A stretch of 64,000 bases of DNA from NCBI RefSeq assembly GCF_032118995.1, contig NC_092662.1, positions 17,249,701 to 17,313,700 of the forward strand, in the 5' to 3' direction. Position 1 is the first letter of the stretch. The number at the start of each line of letters is the position of its first letter. The DNA is from Asterias amurensis (lineage: Eukaryota; Echinodermata; Asteroidea; Forcipulatida; Asteriidae). The notes below the pieces were generated by a model. That model did no database searches and had not been told where the DNA came from. It saw nothing but the letters and a program-made list of their open reading frames with translations. Of this stretch, positions 35,113 through 57,440 are shown piece after piece. Position numbers and translations under genes: made by a program.

Positions 35113-38100
35113 TTGTCTGTATCATCCCAAGGCAAAATTAAACAAAGCAGTGACGTCATATTCAAAACGGTCCATTGATGTCAACAGTTGATGACGTCAA
35201 TGGAAGTGTCGTAAAATACTTTTTAATTTCTTTTTGTATACAATCCACTAAAGTTGCGTAGACCTGAGACTAAGATAGCATTTAAAACAATTTATGGAAA
35301 CATTTGAAAAAACAATTGAACAAGTTTCTAAAATGTGTGAGATCATAAAAATTTTTAACAACATGAGAAGTCATGCACATTTTGCATCAGGATGTCATTA
35401 GATTGATCATATAAATTTCAAATTCCTAAACTGTCCAATTTTGTATACAAGAAATGAAGTAACAATATTTTACTCAACAAGGCAGCATGGAAGACACAAT
35501 TGTATTTTCATCTGCAGGAGAATGACCGATCGAGAGTTTTGCTGGACCAGTCTCAAGTTTCCTGCTTTGCAAATTGTCCCCTTTTGTCTAGCTTCTGAAA
35601 GGCTTTATGACATTGGGTTGCATGTGTTAGAGAAGATAACAAGTACCCAATAAACCAGCACATAAGTAAAGGGTTTCAAGATAACTTTCACCGCAGGCTT
35701 CTGAGATGCTGTGATAAAAAAATGGCTTTGGAGGCACCCTTGGTTAAAAACAACCCCAGAGATATAAAATAGTTTTTACAGTAGAGTGATAATAATGTTA
35801 AGGCAATTCCAAATCAATCTGCAATCAATGCCTTGATAATGTAATAATTCCCAATTCATTATCAATACCGTGTATAACACTTGAAATTTATTTTGTTAAA
35901 ACCATAGAAATTGTTAAAACATATACATACGCTCTGCTATCAACCAATATCCCTCTTTACACCACACTCTACTTTCGGAGCGCCATTTATGTTAACAGGT
36001 TACACCTTATAAGAAAAGAACAAGCTCCGGTAAAGCCTTCATACAAATATTATGCAATCTCACATCGATGAGTTAACAAAAATAAAACAATTTAATAATT
36101 ACAATAAACTGATCCCCATTTAAAATCATATGCGGAACATATTGCTGCCTTCAAGCCAATAGGCAACACCTTCGCATGAGTCAGTATGATTAATATTCAC
36201 TTATCAATTCGCTATGCACAATCTGAATCAATTAATTATATAAAAACAGGTGTTTTATAACGGATGAGTAAATAACAACAAAGGTAAAACAGAACATAAT
36301 TAAAAACAATGAGCAGTTTTTAAAAAGCAATTTATGACACCCAAGGACCTCTTAAATCACTCCTTAACCTAAAAAAATACACAAAGCCAATGAAAATCAG
36401 TGCATCTTACATAATATCTAACTATGTGCATTTTATACTGTTCAGCAGGGTGAACAAAAATAATGCCCGTCAATGTACATGGTAGAGCATTACATACAAG
36501 CAAACGTAACTTTTAGGCCATTATTGAACCGACAGCTTCAGCAGTAACCATTGCTAAACAGTCCTACTCTTCACTGCATGCAGCCGAAGACCACAACAGT
36601 AGCTCAAGTTACTTGTTCATTACATTTTACACAAACAATAAGGATTTATGATGACAAAACTCAACAAGACCTCCCAAATATTGAAAACATCTGAACATCC
36701 TTACAGAGCTGCCATTATGTGTATCTTGCAATCATGGAATTTTGTACAACAATCGTGGAGAACAAAGTTTCAATATTGAATAATCAGTGAGATTTTAAAA
36801 TTTATTCATCAGAACATGGAAAGGTTAGTTTATTTTCCCAGACTTCCTGCTGAATCAGGGAGAAATGGCAGCTCTGTCTCAACCATTTCTTAGCGTACAA
36901 AATATGTAGAGGTTAGTTGTGTTGTGTATAATTTATTTTGATTTCTACAGCTGGTTAAACTTGATAAAATCTTCAAATTTCTTAAAATGTTGTAAGACAT
37001 CAAAAGTGTACATTATTTACCTGAACCTAAGAAAAAATGTCAAGGAGAATTGTATAAAAATAGAACAGCTTCCCAAATGTGAAAAACCACGATTTCAGAC
37101 AAAATTGTATTTCATATAAATCTCTGGAGCAAACTTCAGAAAAGTTGAGAGACAGAATCTATATATGGGGACTTTCAGAATTAGCAATGCAATGTTTTTA
37201 AATGCCAATTTGTTACTATGAAATATACCAACACATATACAAGAAAAAATGGTGGGGGTTCAGAGAAAATAATTGAAAAAAAAAAAAAAAAATTAAACTG
37301 AAATTAGGCGCGAGTGGTTGAGTCAAACATTTCTAAAAAACCCTCCCCTTTTTAGACAAACATTGATAATTCAAAACTACCATAATTTGAGTTACCCAAA
37401 ATCAGGGTTTAAGATTCAGTTAAAGATGATATGGGGTAACTGTATCTGAGGTATAGTACATTTTAAGACAGTTTGTAAGAAAAGTATCAAAGAAAGAAAA
37501 TAATTAAAATGTACAAAACAAAGTTACATGTAGCATAACATAAAGGCAAACAAAGTAAGTGTCCAATTTCATTGGGACATTTGTAAGATTATTCAAATTT
37601 CACATCATTTACATTCAAATTATTTAAAGTGTTTTTGTCCTATCAAATTTTAAGGAAAGAACAAAATTCATACAAACACTCGTTAAAAAAGTACTATGAA
37701 TGTGAAATTGAGTACTGAAATATGAAAAAAATGAAATAATTTGAAGGGAAAAAACCCAAGCATGAACATACAGTACTGGAAAAATGGAAAGTGGTGATTG
37801 TGTCGTTTTTAGCCAAGTTGACTGTGACATGTCAAAAGTTGTTTGCAGTTAGAGCTCGATGTCTTAATTATAAGTAATGGATAGAACGATAGATCACAAC
37901 AATTTTAAGTTAGTAAACTTGCAGGTCCAACCATGTAGGGAGAAGTGTTGCTTCTGATAATAACTGGTGTGGTCTGGACATTTCGAACAGTTTACTCTGC
38001 TCTCCTAAATTCCGAAAAACTCTGTGGTAGTAGAATATATAGCAAGACAACTTCTCAAAAGAACATAATCTAATAATTATTATTATTTATCTACCCAGCA

Positions 38101-38178: not shown

Positions 38179-41100
38179 TCAGACGTCTGTGTGGAATATG
38201 ATGAGTTGTGTGTACTGACAGAGACACATGTCGTGATCAGAGTGAAGTGTTCTTTGCGCCCTCGGTAGCTTGCCTCGGATGAGCTTATGTACGTAAGATG
38301 GACTACACTGTAGAAGATATAGGTCACCTTCCTCCTAGAGAAACAAAGATGATAAAATATTATGAGATTTATAGTTTGTGGGCCAGGTGCAGCAATGTTG
38401 GATCCAAATAGATGGAAACTGGCTTCGGGGATAAAGAATATTAATTTTGGTTTTACCCATATACACCAATTTTCTGTTAGCACTGTATACTCAGTACTTT
38501 CCCGTAGACCTTGTTAGATCTTGTTTGTGCAAGAATGTCAAATGTCAAAACCATTCTTGAAAATGGTTCGTACAAAAACATCAAGTCTCTGCACCTATTA
38601 CGTTGTGTGTGCATTAAGGTTATTTTAAGTGAAGATTTTACAACGGTTTGGCTAGAGGGGGAAGAAAAATAATTTGTTGGGGTTTATGCTTTACCAATTG
38701 ATTGCAATGTACTTTATTGATATATATTTGGTTTGTGTTACCGCAAACCAAATATATATTGATACCCCACCATGCAATGCCTCAAATCCTATATACTTTA
38801 TTGATGGAATCAACCACATAGTGTGTATTACGAAGCTGTAGGTCTAGAGTAGAAAATGTTAACTTTTGTGATTATGCACTGTGCCAAACCACAGCAACCA
38901 CAAACAAGAAGTCTGGAGTTTCTGATTGTTTATTGACTTAATATGTTTAAAATAATTTGTATAATACGAACTGGAACAAATTCATTGAAACAGGCTGTTG
39001 TTTTGTTGTTTGTATTAATTACAAGGTCTGACCTTATGGTATAGGAATGCACGGCTTCCTGTTCAAGTTATTTTTGTTACTAACTGGTATTAGAAAAAAA
39101 TCATAAATCAGATAGAAATAGTAAGAACACAGTGCTGGTTATTTTGATTTTTGGGGTTGAACAAAAATTGACTAGAGTGGGATTCGAATTAACGACCTCC
39201 AGAATAACGTGCTGGCGCTCTACCAACTGAGCTATTTAGCCCTATGTTTGCAGTGTCTGGTTATAATGACATAGTTGTTCTTCAAGACTCACTTGTACTG
39301 AGGATGGTTCAGTAGCTGCAGTTAATGTCTCAGGTGACATTACACGATGTCGAGTATCGATGGTCAGACGAGATGTATCATCAACATCTCCTTGCATATC
39401 AAAGCTGACTGTCACATCCTGTGTGTATTAAAGAGAGCGTTTGCATCAAGGGAGGGATTAGCACTGGAGTTTAAGGGGGATTAAGAATTCGCTAATTCTC
39501 TGGAATTTTAGATCAAAACTTTACCAGGTCACAATGAAACTACACCAAAACAACATCAAGGGGTGTTCAGCAGATGCCTGAACACCTTAGAAGAGAAATA
39601 CTTTTCTCAAATGAGTATTCATTTTTGATATTTTGGGAATGGAATGAGGTGGTTTATAACCGTAAGTTACATACATTTCTCATTCTTTTAAGTTACATCA
39701 CTTACTGATAACCCTGACACGCATCTATACAATAGTATAATTCTAAACCTTAAAACATTTAGTTTATCCTAATAAACATAAAACCACTTGATGGATCCCT
39801 GGACAAAAGATAAGATCTTTGGCCTTGAGCCGGCAGTCAAGGGGGTACTTCAGTTTTCCCAGGCCATGTGAAAAGACGCTGCAAATTGCATTTTGTTTTC
39901 TTGAGTGTCGATCTAAGTAGATTAAACGTCTTACCGTGTTCGTTCCTCTTTGTAGGTTTCTCTGCTCCGTTAGAAACTGGCTCATCCTCATCTGTAAGGA
40001 CAGAGAGAAAAATCATGGTGAATAAAAATGCTTTACTCCTGTTTAGACCTTATTCATAGCGCAACCGTCATGCTTGTCTGATGTAAATACAATGTAGATG
40101 AATAAGCCTTTTTGAGGTATGGTGGACATGCATAGGAGTGCACTGTTTGGTTTGGGTGTTTACACACAAATTTACCCAAAACTTATACTGTTGTAGCATT
40201 GTGTCCGCCATATCTAAAAAAAGGCTTATAGAGGTTGGAAGGCGGCAATATTAAAGTCTGAGCCCCCTTTTGATATTCAAAGAAAACCAGTGTGTATTAA
40301 TGCTAAGGCACTCAAGGTACATGACAAAGATTTGAATAGCATGATTTGTACATTTACTTAATTATCTATTTATTTATTGTCCACTTTCACAACAAAAATA
40401 AAATTGAAATTTACATGTCTAAAATTGATTTAAGCTCCAGAACAGGACAGTAAAAAAAAATAAAAAATAGACAACCTTGAAAAATAAATATTAAAAAACT
40501 TGTTAAAAAAGTGCAGTACAAATAAAGAGAATATTGGTAAGATTGAGACACCTCAGATCACAGCCCCCCCCCCCAAGAATCGTAAGGCTTAGCATGGTCA
40601 CCTGCTTAGCATACTCAGTGTACATTTTTATTGGAAATCAGCTCTGTGCTGTGCAAAGGGCTGCAGTCAAATGATACGATGCCCTTACAAAACAGCTTAG
40701 CAAATTTGCATTTGAAAGCAGCAGTAAGCATGCTTAAAAGAGACTCAGTAATTTGAGTCATTAAAACTACCCTCAAGCAATACTAATTAGGAGGAAGTAA
40801 GTGAACATTCTATGAGGAACTGACTCCAACTGAATTATGAAAATGAAAGAAACTAAATTGAAAAGAACTTACCCTGCATTTCCGAAGGTCATAATAAATG
40901 AAATGCAACTGTGCATGAAGTCAAGGAAACATTAAGTTATTTTAATAATATTTCAAATTATTTATATGCTTTTATTACTATATGTTATATGACATGTTTT
41001 TAACGTGTTAGGTTTTACTTTCACACAAAAAATAAAATAAAAAATCTGTAGGCTATTTACCCAAAACCTCCGCATTCTAGATCAGATGTCTAAGCAATTA

Positions 41101-44100
41101 GACCATCGAGCGTGCCCAGTTATCACATGTATATTATGGGTTGTACACAAGATTGATGACCCTTTGGATCACGTAAATAACATTATACATGTACGACCTT
41201 AGCACAGAAAGAGTTAACAAACATGAGTTTTTTTTTATTAAATTGAAATTGAGTGGGTGTACTACAAAGTTATAAAATAACCGATATGTTTTATTTCATC
41301 TGGTCCTTGCTCTATCATTTCATTTAGCTTGTTTTATAGCTACCCTACCCGTTAGTTCAAGAACTATGAATTGAAAATTACAACCTGTAAAACGCCTTGA
41401 AAAATGCGAAAAGGATACAGTTGCTCTGTTCCAGCAGGCCGAGAAGCAATCCGTCATTCCAACCAGGGTGTTGTGTCTGGCTAGGGTAATATTAGCCTTG
41501 GCTAGGTGGTTCTCTATGTGGGTGTTTAACTGAAGAGAAAGAAATAAACATCAATAATAACAGCAATAATTACTTGATATTCAGCTTCTGTTGTTTACAA
41601 AAACAAGTTGTTTGTGAATGATGACAATAAATTATGATTGGATGAATTGGTGCAACGTTGTACGCTATCAATCTAATGTCTGGTTTCATTTTCAAGAGTT
41701 ACATTTTTTCCAAAATAAAAACTTCAACTTCCGGTTTGAACTGGCTGTCGAGGTCAAATGGGTTCACACAATGTGTAGTGTTTGGTGACTTTTTGAAGAC
41801 CTTTACAATGATGTATAAACTGTAATCAGTTGTTATGTTTAGCGCTTTATCTACGGACATCTCAAATTGCTTAAAAGTATGTTTTAAGTATGCGCAAGAG
41901 TTTCACAGTATTGTACTAGAGTTGAAACCATCAGTTCCAACTCAATTACAGATTATCATTACAAGGTGTTACCACACACCCAGAGAGTTATATATAAGAA
42001 CTAGAGGGCACACTGGTGATGCTTCTTGCACAAACGCGACGGGACTGCAAGATGACATGCGCTTGGCATTCTGTGCGCGCGTTGAATATGAAGTACACGT
42101 TGGAGTTTGTGTTAATTGAACGCTATGCGATGAACGCTATGCGATGAACGCTACGCAATGCTGTTTTGCACAAACACACGCTGTGCGATGCCTGTTTTGT
42201 CAACTTAGAAAATGGCCGCATGCGCAGATGCCTGGTCGCATATATAGGCCAGTGCGCCCTCTAGTTCTTATATATAACTCTATGCCCAAACCCTACTAAT
42301 GTATAGTTCTTGTACTTACCTTAACTGTTTCAAGATGGGTGATAACATGGACCAGTACAGTGATGATAATGGATAAGATGAGACCGATAAGGAAAGCCCA
42401 GCCAGCATGGATGGTAGCCTTCTCACTACCGAAGGCACTGAGGTTGCCCACCAGACCAACAATGATGAGTACAGAGAGTAAGATGCAGAGAGTGATGCTG
42501 AAGATGCGGTTATACCAAAGGGTGTGCCAACGCATCTTAGGACTCTCTAAGATGGTATTGATGCATGAGGTGTAGTCAGACTGAGGAACCTACAAAGAAA
42601 ATGTGAAAGGTAAGTTTAAAAAATGGTATGAGAATGTTCTGAAATAGAATGTGTAACCTGGGCTCAATTTCACAAACCAATAAACCCCAAATGATACTTC
42701 TTAAAAAATGACTTGATGCTAAACATATTTTAGGGCCAGGTTAAAATGTCTTTCAGTGTAGCCTGGCCCAAATTTGGTCTAAAAGGAACCAGTTATCACT
42801 ACTGCTTTAGCTCACAGGGAACAAGACAGAGATGGTAAACTTACAAACGTCTTGACTCTGTACTTACCATAACTCCTTTCCTTGCAAGTTCATCTGGACA
42901 GTAGATGGTATCAAACCTTGCCCTACAACAGCATTCTGTCATGGAGTAAACCTGACCCAATTCTACACCGTTGTACAAAGCTACAAAAACAAAAATTCAA
43001 CCATGAACAAACAAGTCAGGTTTTATCTTAGGTTACAACACGCAGCACTGATATTCCATTCAGGGGCAGAGATTTTGCCCTAGTGAAGGGCACCTCTATG
43101 AGTGAAACAAACATTTCTATTGGGCCATTTTAAGGGGCACCAAGGCACTGGCCTCTATCGCCTCCATGGTCCCAATTCCTGAAGGATGGTCTATTTTTAG
43201 TGTTAACTTGTACATTGAACATTTCATGAGGCACCAAGGCAGTAACATGGGAAATGGATGAAGGCAATGGCCTCTGTTGCCTCTGTAGAGAAAAATCATG
43301 CTCCCACTTTCTAAAGGAAAGAGTAAAATTGTCAGGAACATTTCATGGGGGCAACATTACACAGAGGCCATGGACTTAATTGCCTCTTGGTCTTGGCCTT
43401 GGTGCCCCTTGAAAAGAAACCCATAGACCTTAAGACTTTCCAATGTAAGTGCACTTTGCAATAATAAAAATGGCCTCGCCCTCTCAAAGAAGAAATGTAA
43501 TCAGCAGAAAGGCTTGAAAAAAGTTTGTCCCCTTTGTACTTACCGGGAACGTTGTACTGAGCTGAAGTTTCTAACGTTCCTCGGTAGGGATCTGTAGAGG
43601 AAAATGAAACAAACAAAAAACTACTCATCGTCTTAAAGTAACCAGGAAATTGTTTTCATGGTTAGTCATGTCAAGCAATATTTTGCGATACGTTGACAAA
43701 ATGAAAATGCAAAACCTGTATAATCCACTTGGAATATATCTTCAAAACTGATGAGTGAATTAATGACAGGTAAAATCCAGATGAAAAATTATATTCTCAG
43801 ACAGGTAAGATGTTTTCTAATTCCAAGTTTAGGATTGCTCAAAAGATTTTGCAGTGTTTCCTCTGATGCATCTCCTCATCAGCTCTAAGCATGGATCTAA
43901 ACTTACCAAACTGGAGAGCAGCGATGAATTTCTGCCAGAAGTTCTTGGACATTCCATCCACATTTGGAATATCCTGCAGGAAGTCCGGTAAGTCAACCTC
44001 TGTCAACAGCACTGGGATCACCTTGTTAACATTTCTAAAATGATTCTTCAGAGCTTTTAAGTTTTCGTAGGTACACCACTGGCTCAAGACAAAATCAGGG

Positions 44101-47100
44101 GAGAGAACAAGGACGATTTTCCGCGCCGTGCAGAGTGAGTTTACAATTTTATCCATGCGTACATTTCCCGGGTCCAGTTCATTTTTGTGATTGCAACAGC
44201 TGAAGCCGTATGCTGGAGACTCTAGTTTCTGCATGACGTTAACAACCCATTCTTCGTCATCCTTGGAGTAGCAGAAGAAGGCGTGACAGGATTCCTCGCC
44301 GACGAGTGGAGGGGAGATCCCGCTCTCAGAGTGACCCCTGCTGGCGGCCTGGGTTGCTTCATCTTGGAATGTGGAGTTGTCTGATCGGCTGTCTCGGAAG
44401 TCATCTTCATCATCTTCTCGGACTCGGATGATGTGATCACCTTGATCCGCCTCCGCTTCCCAATCGTCTAGCGGGCTGGCGCTATGAGCGAGGTCATCTG
44501 TATACAGCAGCCCCTCTGATACAACAAATAAAAATAGAAATTTGATCAATCCAGCACTCATAAATTCATTTGTTTTGCAAAATTCTTCCTGGTAGAGCAC
44601 CATCACCTTAATCCTTAGGTTGTTGTCCCTATTACTCTGGTCGTTCTTTTCTCCTTATAAGCGCCTTATAAGGTAATGATTATAGGTTAAAATCCTGCGC
44701 TTGGTAATTTTTTTTTGTTCGAACCAAAATAAAGTTTCTTCCTATAATGTTTAGTAGGATTTGAAACTTTCTAGTTTGCATGGAGGGAGTATCAGGTGAG
44801 GTTTGCGGTGACACCATGTGTAAAGTCTCTTTGAGTTGAAGTAGTTCTGAGAAGAAACTCAACATTTCGATCGATATGCTCTAATCGTCTTCAGGAGGAG
44901 GCTGGAATCTGTAGCTAGATGCTGCTTTATAAGCACTGCCAATAATGTTGGTTAAAATGGCGTTGAGACAAGGGGTTATTTGCAATCAATCTGAATTCAG
45001 ACACACAAGCGATGTAATTTACATTGTTACACAAAATAAATAAATAATTGCGTTTGCTTATGACAGCCCATTTCAAACTTCACACTCATCCTTCATTAAA
45101 TTTATTTCAAACGGTTCAACTTGACTGCATATTGACAGTTCCACTTTGCTTTCAACATTCCACCCCACTTAATTAAATCTGACATAGCCACTTAGTATCA
45201 CACAGCAAAGATAAACCTACGATACATGACAGCAGAAGTTGCAAACAGCGATCCGGCCGTCCTGCTATCCCGCTTGATAAAACGCCCCTGGCATTTTCCG
45301 AGCAACACAAAGTCCACGGGTTTACAAATCGGCATTTAATTCCTTTCTAGCTACTGATAATTATAAATGGCTTTCAAAGATAGGTTACTGAACTTATCAC
45401 TAATGATAAAATTACAACTTGGCATCTCACTGCATAATACCAAGTCATACTAAATAGACTGTTGTGGTTGTATTAGTACTGGCTAGCGTTAGCGAGCACT
45501 ACCGTCCCCACCCACACACTGTATACAAACAACTAGTTCGCTCTTTAGCGATGTGGCATATGTAGGTTTACACTCAATTTGAACCAGGCTTTTATTTACA
45601 TGTCTGCTTTTATCCAACAGGTGTGAGTGCATCAGGATTAGTGAGGGTATATTTAAAGAGACATCACAAATATTTGGTTGTGGTGTTTCAAAGGCCGTAA
45701 TGCATGGCAGAAAAAAGTATCACAAATAGTGAGATTGGTCTTAAGTGCTTATCAATCTTAATTGCTTAGCAAAAGTGTGATGTCACAATAATACACTGGA
45801 CTAAATTTCATTTAGCTGCTTGAGATGAGCAATATTTTTAACAACTTTCTGCTAACTGCTAAGCAAAATCAGCAGGATACCAGTCATAGATTAAAAATGT
45901 GTCATCATGTTTTGGCTGGTAATCTTAATTTTTGTTGTGCTTTTTTGCTATATAGCAACTCTGAAATTAGGCCCTAGTGTTAGCCATATGGATGTCTGTG
46001 TGTCAACATTGGATTTTATTCCCATGTAAAAAGTACTAGAAATTGAACCATTTAGAGAGAATGAAAACCGATTCTAAATTTTCAGTTATTTTTTCAAGAA
46101 TTTATGACTGATAGTGATAGGCCTACTAGTAGTACACCCTACATAGAAAAGCCTTCCTAACAATTGTTAACCAGTGTCAGACTGCAGACCATGAAATATA
46201 TAGCTAGTTTGAAGCATTTTCAAAACAACTTAAATGTAACATTTTCAAACTGGGACAAAATCTTGCCTTGAAATGTGTGATTTTATCAGCAACCTCCATT
46301 CACTGTTCATGGGTTACTTGTTCAATGCCACTACCACATTCTTTGTGTCTAGTGAACTATGGTAAATACTTCTTGTAAATGTTTAGGTTTGGCTTTCTCT
46401 TTTACCATTCCCACGAACCGTGTCAGGAGAACTGTTGTTATAACTCTGTGAATGCACTGTCCTCACGCTTCTGACTGCTACCTGTACAAATGTCCATTTG
46501 TGTCGCATAGTTGAACAGGTGACAAGGAAATTGTTGTGGATTTAAACAAGTACGTCTAGGTTTTATTAACATTGTTAGTAATTTGTAATTAGGGTATTTT
46601 GTTTAGGGTATTTTGTTTGGAAATCATGCTGGTATTAATTCTGATGAAGCATGGAGTTGTATTTTGAAGCTATGTATTTGTACCGTCAGTGCACTTGACT
46701 TTTTGTTGTTTTGGGTAAATCGCTTGTTAAGGTTCAGGGTGTTTTAAAACACCACTCGTTGTGGGGTTAAGACAAGTCAGTCCACTTGCACATTATAGAA
46801 ATTATGAAGAAATTTACAATAAAAACATGAGTTATATTTACACTTAATTACCTTTATCTACATTAGAAAACAACTTTGATGCCATAATAATTGTTGATAT
46901 AACCTTGTTCCAGAGACGAGGTGGTTTTTAATAAATCATCTTTTGAATAAAAAAATATCTTTTAACTTAATTCACAAAAAGGTGACATACGACCTTGCTG
47001 CATTGGCGCCATGATTATTTTGCTGTAATCTGCAACACATTGTTCATTACAAATTAGTAATAGTTAGTCAACTGTTGATAATGTGCCAATTCCTGCAATA

Positions 47101-50100
47101 TCACATCTTAATTCTTAGTAACTCATTTAGCAGGCGCCTCAAATATTTCATAATTGGAATTTTATCCATGATACATTCAATGTGTTTATAAGCCCGCAAC
47201 ATTTATCTAACTTAAAAATGGAATTCAACATTAAAAATGAGTATTAAAATAATCCAAGAAATAAATGTTGGACTAAAATTTCAAAAGCGAAATTCAATGG
47301 CCACTAAATTTTGTTTGTAAACAGTTACTTCGGAACCAGGTGTTTTTGTACACAAGTTTATGAGGCATGTTACACTGACATCACACAAAAATATAAACAC
47401 TAATTCGTCTACAAGCTTTTCTGAGGAATGATTTGAACTTGGGTTCACAGAGGTGAAAGGGAGAGCAAGATACCACTTAGCCAACCTGGGCCTTGTGATT
47501 TTACGTGACCTTTTATAATTTTAAACAAGTGGTGTTCCGGGCTTATTGCCTGAACACCTTATAAAACCCAAAGTTGCATAAAACAACTTGAATCCTAAAC
47601 CATGACCAAAATGATTAAAGGCACTGGACACTCTTGGTAAATACTCAAAATAATGTTTAGCAAAATAAAACTGTTGAGAGTATAAAACATTGTGAGAAAC
47701 GGCCCCCTCTTGAATGACCCAATTGAGTCAAAATTTTCACAGATTTGTTATATTATGCATGGGATATACACCAAATGAGAATACTGGTCTTTAACAATTA
47801 CCAAAGGTGTCTGTCCATTGCCTTTCAACCCTACTTTTTAACACTCAACCTGTAGGGTAGGATCTATGCTTGGGTAGCCCGGTAGACCAGGTAGAAGAAT
47901 GAAGACTGGTACCACAGACATCCCTCTTTATCCACCTTTTGTCATTTAAATTATATACTTAAGAGAGAATTCCAGGAATGTGGTATTATAGGAAGACTGG
48001 GTACTGAACACCTATAGTGAATGTGAAAGTTACCCACTCAACTAACACTTTCAATGGTGATATTTTCCAGTTCATACTTTCCTCACAACGCTTGCGTGAT
48101 ACTCGTACTGGTTGAGTAAGATTCATTCAACAGGAATCCTTTCAGAATGTTTAAGCATGGAACGAGACGTTTTGTTCGGTTTTCTGGTTGTTTGGTTTTC
48201 ATCGCCTTTAGAGCTGGGTGAGGGGTGTGTGTGTGTAAAACATAATCTGTCCTCTTTATGACCGTAAGAAATACACAAACAAATCAAAGCCCACCTGAAT
48301 CTGTGATTCTGCTGGAAAGCTGTAAATGTGTAAAATGAGACTCAATAATGTTTCAAAGCCCTCAGCCAAAGTTGTACTTGGCTGTTTAGCAATACCGTAC
48401 ATAACTCATATTAAGAAGTTTTTTCCTGACATAATAATTGTTATTTATAACATTAAAAAGCATACTAGCTTTTCATTTCACATTGTTTTTCCCCTTAAAT
48501 TTTTTATGTTAACCTTTCTCCAGGTTAGACCACTGGAAAGCCTACCTAAATTGTAAAACATTTCTGAAAAAGGGTTGTTTAAATTTCTTAATATATTTGC
48601 GATACATAAGTTTATATTTTCAAACGAGACCAGATTTTTTAAGAGAAACAACACAAATTCCAAGATGGTCAAATTTCCAAGCAGGTTTTGTCAGTAATAC
48701 CATTTCTTCCTCCATGGTAATAAACAGTGTCTTGATTCTCTGAAACTGTACACAACCAGCAGCTGCATTTGAAATTATTTCTACACCAATCAGTTTTCCT
48801 TTCTAAAAGGAAATAAAACTACACTAGCAATCAGTGATTTTAGACCATGGACCTATCTTCAAGTCCAGGTTTACAGATGTGATAAAAGATATATATGTCC
48901 CATGTAGAGCATCATAACACAGCAGGGCTCCCATATTACATGTCTGTCTAGACGTGGCAAAGTTCACATACAAAGGTGCAATGCCGTCAAACTCAAGCTA
49001 TGGGGAAATGTTCCGACAATGGTTGGGTCTGTCCAATAGATTGTGAAGTGTTCCCAATTACACTTGGGAAAGTCATCAAGATCACATGAATGAGATGCAT
49101 ACATATTTCCATACTACAAAGTATAAAACCACAACTGGGTCTTTTTTGTCACAAAATTAAATCGTCCGGACAGATTTATTAACAAGAAATAAATTAGAAT
49201 TCAAAACAGTTATTCATATCCAACCAATATTGCAACTAGATTTTGTGCTAATTTTGGCTTAGAAAAATGTTTAAGCTTTTAAAATGGATTCTTAAGTTGA
49301 GAAAATTTACATTTGCACTATTCATTGATGGTTTGTCACCAATTGAAATAGTCTCATAGTATCATGATGTCATTTTATTGATTGGTTGCAACTCGGTTTT
49401 ATGCTTTGATGACAATTATGTAAATCTTATTTACATGTATTGTGAAACAAATCAATACATGTAAATAGTAAACTTGTACAACACTAGCTATTTCTATTTT
49501 GTTACAAAGTTAGCTTTTTCTACTTCAGAATGGATCTATTAACTTTTGAATGACAATGTAGTAGCCCAATAAAGCTAGTGCCATATTTTGGAGCCATGCT
49601 CTGTGCTCAGTGTCAAGACTTATTGATATAATTTTATCATTTATACTAACAGGACAAACTACCGTGAAATGAGTCCAGAGTAAAGTTAAAGCATACGTTA
49701 TACAAAATAATTTAGACCCAGTAACTGGGGCGCTGTACTCAACACTCAAGTTGGGATGGAACAGTACGACTGATTACAGCGCCCCAGGTACTGGGTCTAG
49801 TTGCGATTATCGTTACCCTCAATCACTGTACCCTAAAACACTTCCTGCCTGGAACTTACTACCCGAGTCAATCCGCGGTGCACCAACTCTGGATAAATTC
49901 AAGGATCTCCTACTTAAAATTGAGTTGGCTGATCTATATAACAAAAATTAGTGTATACCGCCTCCTTGCATCGCGCGTTCTGTACGGGATAGCCACAACA
50001 GGCGTTTGTACAGTAACTGACAGATGCAGATGCAGATGCAGAATCAAGGGTTACGACTATCGCAACTAGATTAACACATCACAATGATCAGCACAACTTC

Positions 50101-50684
50101 CCTAAACACCAGCCCTCTTTACGTGCGACTGCATGCCATATCACACAAGATTCTCTTAAGTCTTAGACAGCGAAGAGAGTCAACAGATTCAGAAAGGTAC
50201 ACTGTAGAAACCTCAAAAGAACTACCCCAGTCATGCTAGTCCTATTTTATCTATTCATTTGAACATTTTTTGTTGTTCTTGTTTTTATATTACTAATTTT
50301 CCCTTTTACATTACCCACACAGAGACACATTTGATGTGATTCAAGTCAAGCACTACATCAAACCACAGAGGAAAAAAATAAGTAATTATTTAAAATAACT
50401 GAATACATTAATTATTGATTAACATTATATTTATTTTAACAGTCTTTTTAAATCATTTATTGATTAACATTATAATTAATTTAACAGTCTTTTTTATCAT
50501 TTATTCAAAATACTCAAATGGAAAATATGGTATGGACAGTCAGTTCAGTCTGACTCAGACAAATTGTACAACAAGAAGTACAACAACGAACAACAACAGA
50601 CAGATCATCAGTTTTGAGAACCACAAAATGCTTACCATCCTCCACAAAAAAATCATCATCATAGTCAGGTATACAGTCACCCAT
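38179..50684 (-). CDS. TIR domain fused to TMEM268 (DUF4481)-like membrane protein
   Basis: Exons, from the start: 50684-50636, 44515-43907, 43591-43544, 42980-42868, 42589-42320, 41529-41419, 40908-40873, 39991-39935, 39418-39293, 38334-38179 (TGA). Every junction is AG/GT and the phases agree; total 1,575 nt, 524 aa. Residues 1-91 are acidic and without a signal peptide. Residues 92-220 form a TIR domain: box 1 HAFFCYSKDDEEWV, box 2 NELDPGN, then LSPDFVLSQWCTYE (Glu167) and box 3 NFWQKF. Residues 236-524 follow TMEM268: a VPQSDY segment, two transmembrane helices (about 301-322 and 335-358), TLVGMTDCFSAC followed by LHFIYYDLRKC (vertebrate LLGVTDTVEGC and LWFVYFDLENC), and a C-terminal SYVHKLI...LP block. 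Both ends should face the cytosol. Vertebrate TMEM268 (about 340 aa) has no TIR. Glu167 sits where NADase TIRs have the catalytic Glu, but adaptor TIRs also have it, so activity is undecided. Confidence 0.85.
38420..38512 (-). repeat. SINE family H tail (antisense)
   Basis: It contains 'ttcggggataaagaatatta', 'ttttacccatatacacc' and 'cactgtatactcagtacttt', the reversed 3' part of the family. It lies in the last intron of the TIR-TMEM268 gene. Confidence 0.7.
38720..38759. repeat. Perfect 16-bp inverted repeat
   Basis: The arms at 38720-38735 (ending 'tttggtttg') and 38744-38759 (starting 'caaaccaaa') are exact complements around an 8-nt loop. It is in the last intron of the TIR-TMEM268 gene. 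Function is unknown. Confidence 0.8.
39165..39245 (-). repeat. tRNA-derived SINE head (antisense)
   Basis: Reversed, it shows a strong A box 'tagctcagttggtagagcg' and a B-box region 'ttaattcgaatcccactc'. The spacing is tRNA-like, but the acceptor stem does not pair and the B box is altered, so it is read as a SINE rather than a functional tRNA gene. Confidence 0.6.
40101..40230. mobile_element. Family G palindromic MITE
   Basis: The ends 'taagcctttttgaggtatgg' and 'ccatatctaaaaaaaggctt' are inverted repeats enclosing 'gcactgtttggtttgggtg' and 'aaatttacccaaaact'. A second copy is at 59758-59887. It is intronic in the TIR-TMEM268 gene. Confidence 0.78.
40564..40574. repeat. Poly-C tract (11 C)
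   Basis: A C homopolymer in an intron of the TIR-TMEM268 gene, next to remnants with 'gcttagcatggtcacc' that resemble family B. Confidence 0.85.
41060..41120 (-). repeat. SINE family H head (antisense)
   Basis: 'attctagatcagatgtctaa' plus 'gcaattagaccatcgagcg' is the reversed A-box region of the family. The rest is lost. It is intronic. Confidence 0.55.
41984..42281. mobile_element. Family E palindromic MITE, about 298 bp
   Basis: The termini 'agagttatatataagaacta' plus 'gagggc' and 'gccctctagttcttatatat' plus 'aactct' are perfect inverted repeats of at least 26 bp. The interior is CpG-rich and holds a three-fold 'gaacgctatgcgat' tandem at about 42118-42160. It starts about 40 bp beyond the donor of the 42320-42589 exon. 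Confidence 0.9.
43060..43505. repeat. Cluster of family C copies
   Basis: Several family C blocks lie head to tail or nested: 'aaggggcaccaaggcactgg', 'gcctctatcgcctccatgg', 'gaggcaccaaggcagtaac', 'aatggcctctgttgcctctg' and 'ggccttggtgccccttgaaa'. They suggest repeated insertion or local duplication. The cluster occupies the intron between exons 3 and 4 of the TIR-TMEM268 gene. Confidence 0.65.
45798..45974. mobile_element. Family B MITE, degenerate copy
   Basis: It runs from 'ggactaaatttcatttagct' plus 'gctt' to 'agcaactctgaaattaggcc' plus 'ct'. The interior keeps 'tgctaagcaaaatcagcagg' and 'tggctggtaatctt'. Confidence 0.65.
47615..47827. mobile_element. Family A MITE, internally deleted copy
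   Basis: It starts 'ttaaaggcactggacactc' plus 'ttggtaa' and ends 'accaaaggtgtctgtccatt' plus 'gcctttcaa'. It keeps 'cattgtgagaaacggccccc' but lacks the central block seen in the 390-bp copy. Confidence 0.75.
49709..49800. repeat. Inverted repeat beside the LINE remnant
   Basis: Left 'agacccagtaactggggcgc' plus 'tgta' and right 'tacagcgccccaggtactgg' plus 'gtct' pair almost completely around a loop of about 40 nt. The right arm overlaps the start of the LINE-like reading frame, so this may be a folded-back insertion junction. Confidence 0.7.
49751..49951 (+). pseudogene. Fragment of a non-LTR retrotransposon (LINE) ORF2 C-terminus
   Basis: The frame contains LYPKTLPAWNLLPESI then APTLDKFKDLL. 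This matches the usual end of LINE reverse-transcriptase proteins (a 'F.PRT...WN.LP..I..A.S...FK..L' pattern). No reverse-transcriptase or endonuclease domain is present upstream, so only a 5'-truncated tail remains. It lies on the plus strand in the first intron of the minus-strand TIR-TMEM268 gene. Confidence 0.65.
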
Positions 50685-51941
50685 TTCCGCCTATTCAACT
50701 AATCACCGCACCAACCGGCGGCTAGCCACGGCTCGGCCAAATATGTACCCTGGTTTGCACCGTCTGACGGAGCGTTCCCCCGGCCCGACCTCTCTAAAGG
50801 TTCACACGCTACACGGGGATTATACCGAGGTCGACGCCAGATCAGCGATCAATTAAAATGGTGGAGACAACATCAGTCACCGATGCATCAGCGGCTTGCA
50901 AACACCTGGTGTTCGAGATCGATTGAAAAGTGTAATATTCACAAACTAAGGAACATTTTGATGGAAGAAATTATCACAAGTTGGGATTAGGAAAGTTGTG
51001 GTTTTGCCACAGAAGTTTTTGAGACCCCAGTTGATCATGTAACAACAAGGAGGAAGCTTGAAGCGGTATAAGAGCGCGATGTACTGTGTGTGTGATGGGT
51101 TTACTGGGCTCGATCGGAGTTTTGTTGTGTTGTGTTGTATTTGCTCAAAATTTGTCTTTGTGCGTACGACAAATTAATCAACCTCGTGTATGAGTAGACG
51201 GACCACAGTGTGTACAATTTACCCCTGGCAAATTATATTTACCAAGAGTTTTTCACTGCAATCGATCAAGAGCGGGCGCTCTTGTGATGGAAAGTCCGAT
51301 CAGAAATATTATGGGTCGGGCGCAAAAAGGGGGTGGGGATTAAAAAAGAAGAAGTATGTTTTGCCCTTGACTTTATTAATATTAGACATGTGGACAATTG
51401 TAAGGCAGTGCTAAAAACATTCGAAATCATTTAAGTATGTTCGACTTCACTTGGAGAAGCACCATAACTCTTTTACAGGGGTGTATAATAAAATAAAAAC
51501 TCACTCAGCAGAAAATATCGTCACAGCTATAGAAATATTTCAAAAATAATCTCAAAAGCCTGGAACATTTCTGGATCCGACTAGCACTTTTCAATCTCTT
51601 TTGAATGAATGAACAAATGACAATCTTTCGGAAAACCCTCCAAATGGGAGGTGGGCGTGGGGATCGGAGATCACATCTGTTGCGCGGCGGCCGCCATCAG
51701 CAGTAATAATCGGACTATAGATAAAAACATTATTTTCACGTTTAGTTTAAGATTCTTGTATCTAAATTTGTAATGGTTTTGTCTTTTTTTTTTGTAAGAT
51801 TTCCGTGGAGATTGAAAAATAAAATTGGCATTAATGGGCCTCCGTAGGCATTGAAACTGTACGGAGAGGAGGCGTGTACAACGTCACGTGCTCGATGAGA
51901 AGTTTACATTGAGGTCAAAGGTAACTATAATAATAGACAAC
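50685..51941. promoter_or_regulatory. Shared head-to-head promoter region of the TIR-TMEM268 gene and TBC1D13
   Basis: 1,257 bp separate the two start codons. The left part (50700-50900) is CpG-rich and should hold the TIR gene leader. The right part carries 'gtgggcgtgggga' (GC-box-like, about 51650), 'gcgcggcggccgccatc' (about 51684), a CACGTG E-box at 51885-51890 in 'acgtcacgtg', and 'caacatggcggcc', a YY1-type element spanning the TBC1D13 ATG. No TATA box was placed. The middle is less CpG-rich, so two adjacent promoters are as likely as one bidirectional promoter. Confidence 0.5.
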
Positions 51942-54900
51942 ATGGCGGCCTACAGAGCGAGGTTTGTGTACATTTTATTTTTAGAAATTAAATTATACTG
52001 GCTGTTTAATGAATTGTTTTTCTCAGTTCGTGGACTGAGTTATAATACCTGACTAATTGTTCTTTTAATCTGCAGGGTTGCGGAGTTTGAAGATCTGCTG
52101 AAAGGCCCCGTAATTGATGTTAAAAAGTTGAATCAAATGTGTTCGAATGGTGGTAAGTGAAAACCGTTTTGTTGTGGATAATTGAAAACCCAAATTGACC
52201 GCGCCTGTTTTAATTTATTCCCTTTTTACTTTTTCACCAACAGTACGCTTCAGAATTGTAGCTAAACATTGTTGTTTCTTATCATACACATACAGTAACG
52301 TAAAGTTCAGTATAACTTATAAAATAATATAACTTACTTTTATGTAATGTAGTATTACTATTTACATCATTAGGAAAGAGAATTAAATTAATAATTTACT
52401 TAGCCTTAGTTTCTTAGCTGTGTTTTGCACACTCATCATGAGTTGCTTTTTCACTTCAGCCATGTCAGCCAACAAAGCCCAAAGGTATCGAACCTAGTGG
52501 GCTTCTTAACAAAAATCTTAAGCACAAGAAGGCTTGTAAAGATTCTTGATTTTTTCTTTCTTGTTTTCGCAGGGATTCCAGAATGTCCAGGCTTTAGAGC
52601 AACATGTTGGAAGGTAAGTATTAGATATGCATAGAAAATGATGACGACACATATCTTTATTATTTCTTGAGAAAAGTAAACCATGTAGGCTCTACCCAAT
52701 TGGCGGCTGCAGCTATGTAATGGGGGGGGGGGGGGGTGGGCTTGGGCTATGGATTTTCTATACTAGCCTTATAATTATATGTAGCTACAAATTCAGGTAT
52801 TGGCAATGCCTGATGACCATGTGTGAAATCATGTATTCATTATTTAATTTGCTAGTTTTGCAACGGTTGTTTATTGAAAATGAATAACAACCTATTAAAA
52901 TAACTTTGGGTAATTTAAACACAAATAAATTGTTTTTCTTTGCAGCTTCTGTTGAATTATTTACCCGCCAAAGTCAACCAATGGCCAGAGGCTCACAAAT
53001 CACAAAGGTAAGCTCCTTCAAATCTATTTTATTTTAAAAACTTTTAGAAAGGTAGTCCACCAAGATATCTGCTGCAGGTTGTTTAAACTTTGGTTTGATA
53101 AACACTTGAAAGGCTTAATTTTATTCAGTATTTTTTTTTAGTATAAAGGGGATTGATTTTCCTGTTTGTTTTCAGATCGTTGTACAGGCAGTTTCTCCAA
53201 GAGATGATCATCAAACCAGGACAGCAGCTTCAAGGCGTCACAAGAGCAGATGTGACATTTGAAGATCATGTAAGAAAATCCTTTTGATATGGTTATCAAG
53301 TAAACTCAGTACTCAAGATACTTTTCGAATTAGAAGTAAAACAAAACATGAGATCTGAATTTATTATTCAAATGAAAAAAAAATTGAACTGACAAGATAA
53401 ATATATTTTTTGGAACAAGAATATATCGTTCATATCCCATTCATATGCCATACCTGATGAGTAGAATGCTTCTCACACTTTTGCTTCAGGGAATAAACTT
53501 TCTCTTTATTGCAACAAAAATGGCACAATATCAGCTCCAACATTAAGTTGTAAACTCATCTATATCTGTAATGTCATCTTTCAGTATTGTAAAACCATTG
53601 ATGTTTTCCAAGACTTTGTTTTGTCCTTTTGGGTAGTACAACTTACAAGTGTCTTCTGTTATTGTGGCTATTATTATTCCATTGCTTTTCACAGCCTCTG
53701 AATCCCAACCCCAACAGTGAATGGTCGCAATTCTTCAAAGACAATGATATACTTCTTCAAATTGACAAAGACACAAGGTACATTAATTTTAATTGCGCTA
53801 TTGTTTCTTACAGTTATATTCTCTTTTTGCCTTTGTCTTCTCTCTTTTCCCCACAGATAAGTGTGCCTTAATCGCCAATTAGTTGCTTTTTTCTCACTCT
53901 TCCCATCTGTCATTTTGTCCTTTAACTTTTTGTGGTCAAACAGGCCCCTTCCCTCCACCCCCTTTTGTCTCCTTATTTATTGTTAACCCCTTGCTTTTTG
54001 TGCGATGCACTATACATGAATGGCATTCTTCTTATTATTCTTAAATGCTTGCATACCTTTTTAGACCCTACTCATTAAGTTTAATTTTTTTTTCTAATTT
54101 TCACTATTCTTTTTCCAGGCGGCTGCAGCCAGACATAGGGTTCTTCCAGCAAGCGACAGAATTTCCCTGTGAGGAACTGGTAGATGCATCCAATAATATT
54201 GAAACACTACGGAAAAGGGTCGAGCACACTTTACTTTACTCGGAAGATGTGGCAAAAAATAAACTTGGAATAAGTGTAAGTTTTAACCGTATCTTTAGTT
54301 TCAATATTTCCTGATACTGCTTAACCCTCCTACTGTTGGAACTTTTAATATAAGCCACTCTGTTTTTAATTAGTGTGAGGCAGACAAGTTGGTTAAATCA
54401 AAACATGGGGAGCGCGCTATAGCGATTTACAACTGAGCGTAGTACACTATCCACGATCGACGTCTTGGGCCAAGACTAACTGCTAAGCTGATGCAATTCA
54501 TAATCATACACATTAAACCAATGTTTTTATGAGAGAGACTGGCTGTTGCCAGCTTGGTGTTCGTTTGCTGGAAGTTGCCTTGACTAACACTAGAATTTTT
54601 CCAAATTTTGAGCTCATTTCATAACCATTCTCCCTGCAGACTACAACACAGAAGAAGAAGCCCAAGAGTTATGACTTTGGTCACGAGACGCTTCCAGAAG
54701 GTCAAGAAGCTCACTGGGAAGTAGTGGAGAGAATCTTATTTACCTACGCCAAGCTCAATCCTGGCCAGAGTTACGTCCAAGGAATGAATGAAATAATTGG
54801 GCCTGTCTACTATGTCTTTGCCTCAGACTCTCAAATTGAAAACAGAGGTAGGAACTTTTCGCTGTTGATTCCATAGTATATATTTGCTTTTCAACTAGGG

Positions 54901-57440
54901 TCAATTTCATATCCCTGCTGAACAAATTTTCGTACTAAGTAAAGCAGAAAAACTTATAAATGTAAGCGTATTTCACAGATTAGGCAGACAGAAAAATAGG
55001 CAGTTCATCATTGATTTGCATTGTAATGTCATTCATTTTCATTCAGTAAGCACCAGAAGGTTAGCATGCGTTTTTCTGTGCTATATGAGATAAGGACCAG
55101 GCTCTAAAAAAACAAAAAACAAACAAACAAACAAACAAACAAACAAACAAACAAACAAACACACAAACACACAACAACTAAAACTAGAAAATATACAGTG
55201 CTTCCTATTTTGAGTTTTGTTTGTTTGTTTATTGAGCGTCTATTTGAGGACCCTTTCATCTCCAATCTGAATTCCTCCACAGAGAACGCTGAAGCTGATA
55301 CCTTCTTCTGCTTCACCAACCTCATGTCTCAAGTCCGAGATAACTTCATCAAGTCCCTGGATAACTCTCCAGATGGCATCAATGCTAAGATGCAGCATCT
55401 TATGGCCATGCTGAAACAGAGCGATCCCGCCGTCTATCAAATCTTCTCATCACAAGAACTCAAGCCAGAGTTCTTTGGTTTCCGTTGGCTAACATTGTTA
55501 CTTTCACAAGAATTCCCATTGCCAGGTCGGTTCATTTTCTTTCATCTTTAAGCCAATAGACCGATCCACTAAGCTCCGCCCCATGGCGTATTGACCAATC
55601 ACAACGCAACGGTCCGACAAATAAGGTCTGACATGCGTGTGCGTATCTTGGCGAGCGGGGTAAGATTTGTGCAGAAAAGCATTTGTCCTTGGAGCCCCTT
55701 CAAAATTTGCCAATAGGCTTTCAGATTTTCCAACGGAAGTGCCCTCTACAAAATGAAAATTTTCTTGCCCTCTCAAAGATGAAATTCTAGGCCTGGCTAA
55801 TCATAACTTGTTAAGAAAAATACATTGATCAAGAATATAATGATGTTGTCAACCACCTGTTTTCGACCATCTATTATTTTCAAAACCAACACTACTCAAA
55901 AGAGATTTGATACATGATGCTACTACAAACCTCATCCAAATATACTCCCACCATGCAAAGTTTCAAATCCTAATTGTGGTTGAATATGATTTATATCCAC
56001 TGTTGCTTTCAGATGTTATCAGGTTATGGGATTCATTGTTTGCCAACGAGAGGAGACTAGAGTTTCTTATTTGTGTGTGCTGTGCAATGATAGTGTAAGT
56101 ATTGCTACAATTTTGGTCATGTTCCCATAATATAGAAGCAGTTATGATTACCTGTAGTATTTTCATAGCAAATACCAGGCTGTTTCCACTCCAGCCTCAA
56201 TTTGGTTATGTTGTTTTAAACAGTTTTGAGTTTGAACAAAGACAAATTGACTGGAGCCAACAACCTCCAGATTAACTTACTGGCCCTCTTCCGAACTGAA
56301 TGAAGCCTTTTTAAATTCCTTGGAAAATTTCCTTTAACTCTGTCAGTGCCTAGCCCATGGGACTTGTTAGATTGTTGTAACCCTTGGAAAAGGCGCTATA
56401 TAAATGGGATTATTATTATTATTATTGTTATTATTATTAAGGATATCAGATTAATGTAGTGGTTTATTCCCTCGCCTTTCACCTCTAGGGACCCTGGTTT
56501 GAATCCAGCACGGGCACTATTGTGTTTCAGTCCCTGATTCTTTTTTCTTCCCACATCTATACTGAAACTTCCTTCTTTGTATTCATTCCGTAGGGTTCGT
56601 GCTTGGTAAATTGATTAAAGTTTACTTGAGAAACCTTGGCTCTTTGCAACCAGAACAACTAATAAACAAATTAATTAATTACAGAATTTATAGAAAGTTT
56701 TCCTTTTTTTAACAGACTACAGAGAAGTACAATTTTGAGCGGAGATTTTGCCTGCAACATCAAGCTTCTCCAGGTAACTTTACTCTATATCATGCCAAAA
56801 TGTGGCAGAGGGAGACCCGACCCCCCCCCCCCCCCCCCCCCCAATGTTCTAACACTCTAACAAACGTTTCCCCTGAGCTTTCAAGCCCTATATGTTGGTG
56901 GTCCTCCTATTTTGTCAATAACTTGCCAGTCAGAAGCCATATAACCGTTGGCTGCCGTGTAGCCGGGATCACACCCAAGTTTACGGTACAACATGGGAAG
57001 CGGCAGCCGGGGGATCAAATTAAGGGGATGTGAATTTTGTAAAAATCAAATATCAAGTTATAAACCACAAAGGAAACTGACTTGTTAAAGAAATTGGAAG
57101 AGGTTAAAGAGGATCCCAAGAACATCTACTTCTTCCTCCTCTTTCAAACCATTCCACATCAAAATTTTGGTGTCTTGCGTATGGGAATACGATATGCATA
57201 TTTTGATGTTACAAATTTGCAATGAGTAATTTGCAACAGTTGAGTTGTGCTCAACACCTGCGAAAAATATTCGCTGCGAAAATAGAGATGTGACGTCAAT
57301 ATTTGTTTCGCATTCGCCAAACTGAATTCTCTCAACCAACTGTTAATCATTGTTTCAATGTCTTTACATTTTAGAACTATCCAACTGTGGACATTAATGT
57401 CATCCTAAGGAAAGCTACGGAGTTATGCAAATATCTTTAG
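51942..57440 (+). CDS. TBC1D13: TBC1D13, Rab GTPase-activating protein (complete, 12 exons)
   Basis: Exons: 51942-51961, 52076-52152, 52573-52613, 52946-53007, 53176-53269, 53695-53777, 54119-54275, 54640-54847, 55283-55525, 56013-56094, 56716-56773, 57375-57440 (TAG). Phases agree throughout; 1,191 nt, 396 aa, against about 400 in vertebrates. The TBC domain covers nearly the whole protein: GIPECPGFRATCWKLLLNYLP (residues 33-53, in two exons), arginine finger I121-x-x-D124-x-x-R127, PLNPNPNSEW at 99-108, AHWEVVERILF at 202-212, glutamine finger Y223-V-Q225, ADTFFCFTNLM, FRWLTLLLSQEF and DVIRLWDSLFA. Vertebrate TBC1D13 acts as a GAP for Rab35 and affects GLUT4 traffic; the active-site Arg and Gln here imply catalytic competence. 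The ATG lies in 'caacatggcgg'. No truncation or frameshift was seen. Confidence 0.96.
52722..52736. repeat. Poly-G tract (15 G)
   Basis: A G homopolymer in the third TBC1D13 intron, ending in 'tggg'. Confidence 0.88.
55107..55178. repeat. (AAAC)n microsatellite
   Basis: About 13 uninterrupted AAAC units follow an A-rich lead-in and decay into ACAC/AAAC. It lies about 100 bp before the 55283 exon of TBC1D13. Confidence 0.92.
55675..55796. repeat. Family C interspersed element (reverse orientation)
   Basis: It contains 'ccttggagccccttcaaaat', 'gattttccaacggaagtgcc' and 'cttgccctctcaaagatgaa' and ends 'ctaggcctgg', i.e. the reverse of the 14551 copy. It is in a TBC1D13 intron. Confidence 0.65.
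56375..56600. repeat. Simple ATT repeat and SINE-like unit
   Basis: 'aaaggcgctatataaatggg' leads into an (ATT)n run at about 56410-56440. It is followed by a SINE-like unit with 'ccctggtttgaatccagcac' as a B-box relative and 'gtgtttcagtccctgattc'. It is in a TBC1D13 intron. Confidence 0.55.
56821..56842. repeat. Poly-C tract (22 C)
   Basis: The longest homopolymer of C in the window. It starts 48 nt after the donor of the 56716-56773 TBC1D13 exon. Confidence 0.92.

What the first reader, a model, noticed from the sequence alone, without database searches (positions are those of the whole stretch)
38179..50684. TIR domain fused to a TMEM268/DUF4481 membrane domain
The ten exons join in frame into one 524-aa protein: acidic N-terminus, full TIR domain (92-220), then a TMEM268-like body with two transmembrane helices and the conserved blocks TLVGMTDCFSAC, LHFIYYDLRKC and a C-terminal LP block. 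The TMEM268 family in vertebrates has no TIR and no established immune role. A TIR held at a membrane by a re-entrant two-helix anchor, with both ends cytosolic, is unlike TLRs, IL-1 receptors, MyD88 or SARM. It could be an adaptor, or a signalling or NAD-cleaving effector. I do not know of a published description of this architecture; that statement is from memory only.
Basis: partly seen in the sequence, partly recalled or inferred. Interest (0 to 1): 0.87.

Follow-up and report, generated by a model that had tools for sequence, protein, structure and literature searches.

The report
Sea star TIR–TMEM268 fusion gene
A sea star gene appears to join a Toll-receptor-type signalling domain to TMEM268, a membrane protein whose mouse version keeps a phagocyte integrin stable, which suggests a direct link between microbe alarm signalling and phagocyte adhesion; RNA evidence is still missing.

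Summary
Ten minus-strand exons (50684 to 38179) join in frame into 524 aa. Pfam gives TIR_2 3.8e-14, TIR 7.7e-13 (aa 96-205) and DUF4481/TMEM268 2e-27, nearly full length (aa 247-515). No other DUF4481 gene was detected in the 491.5-Mb genome (8 of 11 matches lie in this gene; the other 3 have E>=0.19). The region 5' of exon 1 is GC- and CpG-rich, whereas the introns between TIR and DUF4481 are CpG-poor and hold no AATAAA/ATTAAA. The TIR exon is phase 1-1, so skipping it keeps frame.

The TIR is TLR1/2/6/10-like with a Pro-Gly BB loop, so an assembly TIR is likelier than an NADase. Best reading: a hairpin-anchored TIR adaptor bringing Toll/MyD88-type signalling to integrin-bearing membranes. 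Architecture well supported; mechanism inferred; no RNA and no second species seen.

The parts
50636..50684 (-). exon 1, start codon at 50684-50682, aa 1-17 (phase-1 end)
   Evidence: donor in top 0.62% of GTs
50685..50900 (.). GC/CpG-rich putative promoter and 5' UTR (GC 0.56, CpG o/e 1.15; whole window 0.369 and 0.52)
   Evidence: 0.19% of 216-bp windows are this GC-rich
43907..44515 (-). exon 2, 609 nt, phase 1-1: acidic N-terminal region plus TIR domain, aa 17-220
43544..43591 (-). exon 3, 48 nt, phase 1-1: linker aa 220-236
   Evidence: acceptor top 0.08% of AGs, donor top 0.06% of GTs
42868..42980 (-). exon 4: start of DUF4481, aa 236-273
42320..42589 (-). exon 5: DUF4481 with both transmembrane segments, aa 274-363
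41419..41529 (-). exon 6: TLVGMTDCFSAC block, aa 364-400; followed by a U12-type donor at 41418
40873..40908 (-). exon 7: LHFIYYDLRKC block, aa 401-412; preceded by a U12-type branch site TTCCTTGAC beginning at 40928
39935..39991 (-). exon 8, aa 413-431
39293..39418 (-). exon 9, aa 432-473
38179..38334 (-). exon 10: end of DUF4481, stop codon, aa 474-524
36932..36937 (-). nearest AATAAA after the stop codon (candidate poly(A) signal, 1241 nt downstream)

Best explanation
A sea star TMEM268 gene, the only one detected in its genome, carries between its first exon and its DUF4481 body a phase 1-1 exon encoding a TLR-type TIR. The product would be a cytosolic TIR held by a two-helix membrane hairpin. 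Most likely it is a membrane-resident sorting adaptor: the DUF4481 body binds integrin tails and rides with them between plasma membrane and endosomes, as mammalian TMEM268 is reported to do for CD11b, and the TIR assembles with Toll receptors and/or MyD88 there, coupling integrin-based adhesion and phagocytosis to Toll signalling. In-frame skipping of exon 2 could give a TIR-less TMEM268, so splicing could set the balance. Shown at DNA level: domains, order, frame, phases, no second copy detected. Inferred: one mRNA, topology in the sea star, integrin binding, TIR partners, isoforms.
For: Domains and frame. TIR with a C-terminal FW motif; nearest solved TIRs are TLR2 3.9e-13, TLR1, TLR10, TLR6, then TIR-STING 7.3e-11, against MyD88 1.4e-5 and SARM1 0.11 at best. 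The nearest TIRs elsewhere in the genome (C11, C1) lie in LRR-TIR receptors (L013, L014; TM segment by eye). Only DUF4481 gene detected. GC/CpG-rich region at exon 1, CpG-poor introns 2 and 3; no AATAAA/ATTAAA in introns 2 or 3. Mammalian TMEM268 binds CD11b and ITGB4 and protects them from degradation; knockout mice have higher cytokines, which the authors attribute, as a hypothesis, to enhanced TLR signalling (PMC11169502; PMC6748091).
Against: No transcript evidence. No second species could be examined. No interaction data; conservation of the integrin-binding surface was not tested. The acidic dileucine motif EDEGLL at aa 15-20 is no better than chance (652 of 5000 shuffles of aa 1-91 hold one). 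No TRAF6-type motif and no Death family. An in-frame ATG in intron 2 (43628, read) leaves an alternative TMEM268 start open. The exon 2 acceptor is the weakest of the nine. The TIR tree does not place this TIR (long branch, weak forks).
Confidence: 0.45

Rival explanations
1. The fusion is real but inhibitory: the membrane-held TIR is a decoy that sequesters MyD88 or TLR TIRs at adhesion sites, as SIGIRR-like receptors are thought to do (recalled).
For: Same anatomy as the best explanation. Tmem268 knockout mice in the sepsis model have higher serum TNF, IFN-beta and MCP-1, i.e. TMEM268 dampens output (PMC11169502 discussion). No Death family and no TRAF6-type motif in the protein, so it could not signal without partners.
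Against: The BB-loop Pro-Gly, which a decoy need not keep, is kept. SIGIRR matches are weak (E 0.22 and 0.33).
Confidence: 0.25
2. The TIR is an NAD-cleaving effector activated by clustering on the membrane.
For: The Glu at the catalytic position is present (WCTYE, aa 163-167).
Against: That Glu is also frequent (>90%) in TIR subgroup 3.2 of heterodimerising TLRs, and among animal TIRs only SARM1 was known as an NADase (PMC7075850). The SARM1 BB-loop pattern E-(R/K)-L-E-A-G reads N-E-L-D-P-G here (aligned by eye), so 2 of the 3 positions that paper names for catalysis differ. SARM1 matches only at E 0.11-0.17.
Confidence: 0.08
3. Two neighbouring genes: a TIR-only gene ending after 43907 and a TMEM268 gene starting in intron 2 or at exon 4.
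For: Exon 2 reads on to a stop at 43841-43839, and an ATG at 43628 opens the frame into exon 3. No RNA evidence excludes it.
Against: Strong donor and acceptor across intron 2 in matching phase (top 1.05% of GTs and 0.08% of AGs); intron 2 is 315 bp without AATAAA/ATTAAA, though it has one AATATA; CpG-poor introns 2 and 3 (o/e 0.34 and 0.12) against a GC/CpG-rich region at exon 1; exon 4 has no in-frame ATG before M249, which lies inside the DUF4481 match.
Confidence: 0.08
4. The gene makes mainly TIR-less TMEM268; exon 2 is a minor or regulated cassette exon.
For: Exons 2 and 3 are both phase 1-1, so exon 1 can join exon 3 or 4 in frame. The exon 2 acceptor is the weakest of the nine (top 2.55% of AGs).
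Against: Exon 2 is open over its whole length with TIR motifs kept, which argues for use; no isoform data. Not exclusive of the best explanation.
Confidence: 0.2

Closest known systems
TMEM268 (C9orf91; Pfam DUF4481, PF14800)
   Same: Nearly full-length DUF4481 match, two closely spaced TM segments (human 104-126 and 130-152 by PMC6748091)
   Different: An acidic region and a TIR stand before DUF4481; PMC6748091 gives human TMEM268 as DUF4481 plus two TM segments (passages)
Toll-like receptors (TLR1/2/6/10-type TIR)
   Same: Closest solved TIR sequences by phmmer; Pro-Gly BB loop and WC..E segment
   Different: No LRR match, TIR lies before the membrane part, two TM segments in place of one
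TIRAP/Mal and TRAM (TIR sorting adaptors)
   Same: TIR with its own membrane targeting (working analogy; targeting facts recalled)
   Different: Integral membrane part and an integrin-linked body in place of a lipid-binding or lipid-modified N-terminus (recalled); TIRAP matches at E 8e-6 at best, TRAM at 0.44
Animal TIR-STING (PDB 6wt6; oyster by PMC10732462)
   Same: Animal TIR joined by domain shuffling to a conserved immune protein; among the ten best TIR matches (7.3e-11)
   Different: Partner is the STING domain; no STING match here
SARM1
   Same: TIR with the catalytic-position Glu
   Different: No ARM or SAM match; SARM1 BB-loop pattern not kept; E 0.11 at best

Membership tests
TIR domain | Profile match above the curated cut-off | tested here: met
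   PF13676 53.7 bits (cut-off 28) and PF01582 49.1 bits (cut-off 21.3)
TIR domain | Boxes 1, 2 and 3 present (box names recalled) | tested here: met
TMEM268 / DUF4481 | Profile match above the curated cut-off, near full length | tested here: met
   PF14800 96.8 bits (cut-off 25), profile 9-292 of 293
TMEM268 / DUF4481 | Two TM segments | tested here: met
   Hydropathy
TMEM268 / DUF4481 | Orthology to vertebrate TMEM268 | tested here: inconclusive
   Only DUF4481 gene detected in the genome; a RABGAP1-like neighbour fits the recalled human 9q32-34 linkage; no tree was possible
TMEM268 / DUF4481 | Binds integrin tails | not testable with these tools
   Reported for mammalian proteins (PMC6748091, PMC11169502)
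Toll-like receptor | LRR ectodomain plus C-terminal TIR | tested here: not met
   No LRR family among the 4 families listed at E<=1, TIR is N-terminal; three TLR-like loci of the same genome (L013, L014, L020) show LRRs in the same library
MyD88 | Death domain plus TIR | tested here: not met
   No Death family among the 4 families listed at E<=1
SARM1 / NADase TIR | ARM-SAM-TIR, BB-loop E-(R/K)-L-E-A-G, catalytic Glu | tested here: not met
   No SAM or ARM family listed; 2 of 3 named BB-loop positions differ by eye; Glu present. NADase activity itself was not tested
TIR-STING | STING domain | tested here: not met
   No STING family among the 4 families listed at E<=1

The most novel reading that the evidence does not exclude
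In sea stars the integrin-chaperone TMEM268 was turned by exon shuffling into a built-in Toll adaptor: one protein that rides with phagocytic integrins and nucleates MyD88-type assemblies on phagosomes and endosomes, with splicing switching the same gene between a plain chaperone and a signalling form. It would point to a conserved TMEM268-TLR link that mammals keep as separate proteins.
Probability: 0.25. Interest if true: 0.8.

Novelty: new variant of a known kind. Interest (0 to 1): 0.62.

Why it matters
A gene fusion is a natural hint that two proteins work together. Here it joins Toll-type signalling to a protein that in mice keeps CD11b on phagocytes and whose loss raises cytokines by a route its authors leave open (PMC11169502). 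It gives a testable prediction for mammals (TMEM268 near TLR/MyD88 assemblies) and adds a two-helix-anchored architecture to the animal TIR proteins.

Tried and rejected
Second TMEM268 copy: of the three weak matches outside the gene, two were read as ORF lists (L008, L010) and look to me like EGF-like and M28-peptidase genes (named by eye, from recall); the third (L011, E 8.2) was not inspected. The family search with the PF14800 profile found nothing even at this locus and in none of its 14 controls, probably because it searches exon by exon; it therefore says nothing about copy number and was followed by the protein query.

TIR origin: a tree of 12 TIR stretches of this genome did not resolve; the window's TIR is a long branch. 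The 12 were taken from the 23 places; the 11 left out are L035, L046, L047, L049 and L050 (near-duplicates of rows used), L037, L039, L040 and L053 (TIR cut by an intron), and L054 and L055 (distant, weak matches). One row used (L041) is cut short at 89 aa. None of the 44 places was added.

Short motifs: dileucine, YxxPhi, YxxL/I, N-glycosylation and CK2 motifs occur at or near the number expected in shuffles and are not used as evidence.

Relatives elsewhere: none in viral contigs or in the prokaryote genome contigs, as expected for an animal family. No animal collection was available, so conservation in other echinoderms, hemichordates and amphioxus could not be tested.

In print: TMEM268 34 papers (30 listed); DUF4481 1 paper; C9orf91 22 papers (20 listed); at least two of 'TMEM268', 'TIR domain', 'transmembrane protein 268' 10 papers, 0 of 10 holding 'TIR domain'. 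Wider TIR/echinoderm/starfish searches were seen as listings. All this covers open-licence PMC text only. Of the 2008 amphioxus survey (PMC2575513) I saw passages; its supplements were not read.
Full report
What is there. The window lies in a 491,506,623-base genome of 23 contigs (C15:17249701-17313700). That size fits the published Asterias amurensis assembly (491.53 Mb, 22 chromosomes; PMC10625585, abstract start and passages), so the species name is an inference. Reassembling the listed exons gives a 1575-nt reading frame with one terminal stop, GT at all nine donors, AG at all nine acceptors and matching phases. GC is 0.472 in the CDS and 0.357 in the introns.

Domains. Pfam finds DUF4481 (PF14800) at aa 247-515, E=2e-27, covering profile positions 9-292 of 293, and TIR_2 and TIR at aa 96-205 and 96-188, E=3.8e-14 and 7.7e-13; all three exceed their cut-offs. 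The TIR appears complete: by eye it ends with a FW segment (NFWQKFIAAL) just before the exon 2 donor. The first 91 residues are acidic (29 D/E, net charge -24) and two hydrophobic segments lie at about 302-326 and 335-357.

Is it one gene? Five points favour it. (1) The DUF4481 query found 11 places in the genome at E<=10; 8 lie in this gene and the other 3 have E>=0.19, so no second TMEM268 gene was detected. (2) Intron 2 is 315 bp, with a donor in the top 1.05% of all GTs and an acceptor in the top 0.08% of all AGs on the minus strand by a simple weight matrix typed from general knowledge. (3) Introns 2 and 3 hold no AATAAA or ATTAAA; weaker variants occur (AATATA in intron 2; GATAAA and ACTAAA in intron 3). 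(4) The 216 bp before the start codon have GC 0.56 and CpG o/e 1.15, a GC level reached by 0.19% of windows, whereas intron 2 has 0.333 and 0.34 and intron 3 has 0.423 and 0.12. (5) The open frame around exon 4 begins a few codons before it, without an ATG, so exon 4 must be reached by splicing or translation must start inside the domain. Against: no RNA, an ATG at 43628 in intron 2 that is in frame with exon 3, and an exon 2 acceptor that is the weakest of the nine (top 2.55%).

Phases. Exon 2 (609 nt) and exon 3 (48 nt) both begin and end in phase 1. Exon 1 can therefore join exon 2, 3 or 4 without loss of frame. This is a usual mark of exon shuffling (general knowledge) and allows a TIR-less isoform. 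The nearest TIRs elsewhere in the genome are at C11 (1.8e-13) and C1 (2.6e-11); there LRRs and TIR lie in one open frame, so the donor exon is not identified, and a tree of 12 TIR stretches was unresolved. The genome has 23 places over the PF01582 cut-off and 38 of 44 listed places over the PF13676 cut-off; the two lists overlap and are not gene counts.

Junction check. The exon 6 donor looks weak as a normal site (53.5% of GTs score higher). It reads GTATCCTTT, the only match to (A/G)TATCCTTT on either strand of the window, and TTCCTTGAC lies shortly before the exon 7 acceptor; the looser branch pattern alone occurs seven times in the window. These are the recalled consensus signals of minor-spliceosome (U12) introns, so the junction is credible.

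What the TIR resembles. By phmmer against solved structures the best matches are TLR2 (3.9e-13), TLR1, TLR10, TLR6 and a TLR15/TLR2 entry, then a metazoan TIR-STING (7.3e-11), Toll-receptor-related 2 (2.8e-8; from Hydra, recalled), TIRAP (8e-6) and MyD88 (1.4e-5), SARM1 (0.11). The BB loop keeps Pro-Gly. The catalytic-position Glu is present but is also frequent in a TLR subgroup, and by eye 2 of the 3 BB-loop positions named for SARM1 catalysis differ (PMC7075850, passages). An assembly TIR is the more likely reading.

What TMEM268 does. In mouse, Tmem268 loss impairs phagocyte adhesion, migration and complement-dependent phagocytosis; TMEM268 binds CD11b (its N-terminal part, aa 1-152, with the CD11b C-terminus) and limits its endosomal-lysosomal degradation (PMC11169502: abstract, discussion and one results section). 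In human cells its part 104-342 binds the ITGB4 C-terminus and its loss promotes ITGB4 degradation (PMC6748091, passages). Both partner regions are cytoplasmic (general knowledge), which puts both ends of TMEM268 in the cytosol; a TIR placed before DUF4481 would be there too. C9orf91 (the older name of TMEM268) is listed among interferon-stimulated genes in one screen, and TMEM268 shows IFN-gamma memory near AKNA in another study (PMC7289892, PMC7657446, one passage each).

Mechanism. I commit to a membrane-anchored TIR sorting adaptor at integrin-bearing membranes (0.45). A decoy or brake with the same anatomy is the main rival (0.25): knockout mice have higher TNF, IFN-beta and MCP-1, and the protein has no Death match. 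NADase is unlikely (0.08).

Setting. A RABGAP1-like TBC gene lies on the plus strand to the left (exon 17391-17666: RABGAP1L 1.4e-15, RABGAP1 2.4e-14) and another TBC gene at 54.6-55.5 kb (PDB matches to GYP1 and TBC1D22), which I read by eye, from recall, as TBC1D13. From recall, human TMEM268, RABGAP1 and TBC1D13 all lie in 9q32-q34, which would fit orthology; it was not tested.

Verdict. The architecture is real at DNA level (my estimate about 0.9) and not found in print by the searches named. New TIR combinations are many in amphioxus (20 of 28 specific to it) though only about six combinations were counted in sea urchin (PMC2575513, passages), and oyster TIR-STING is a precedent for joining a TIR to an immune protein by domain shuffling (PMC10732462, passages), so I call it a new variant of a known kind.

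Noticed in passing
window 41418 to 40909 (-): Intron 6 carries U12-type signals (donor GTATCCTTT, branch site TTCCTTGAC); the donor pattern has no other match in the window.
   Followed up: partly
window 39169-39241 (-): tRNA-like sequence inside intron 9 (Rfam RF00005, 36.8 bits); may be a tRNA-derived repeat.
   Followed up: no
window about 41983-42282: About 300-bp element in intron 5 with long inverted ends, seen by eye; looks like a small inverted-repeat transposon.
   Followed up: no
window 49673-49948 (+): ORF in intron 1 that looks by eye like the tail of a LINE reverse transcriptase; no Pfam match at E<=0.5.
   Followed up: no
window 728-1825 (-): Single-exon rhodopsin-type GPCR, 7tm_1 E=9.3e-45.
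   Followed up: no
window 17391-17666 and 54625-55548 (+): Two TBC RabGAP genes flank the TIR-TMEM268 gene; one is RABGAP1-like.
   Followed up: partly
G000:C15:3406425-3460588 (L044-L050): Seven tandem, very similar long ORFs (796-864 aa) ending in a TIR-like domain.
   Followed up: no
G000:C1:22631581 and 22641198 (L014, L015): Two TLR-type genes about 10 kb apart with nearly identical TIRs; the second has only a 205-aa open frame, too short for the LRR part, perhaps a truncated copy.
   Followed up: no
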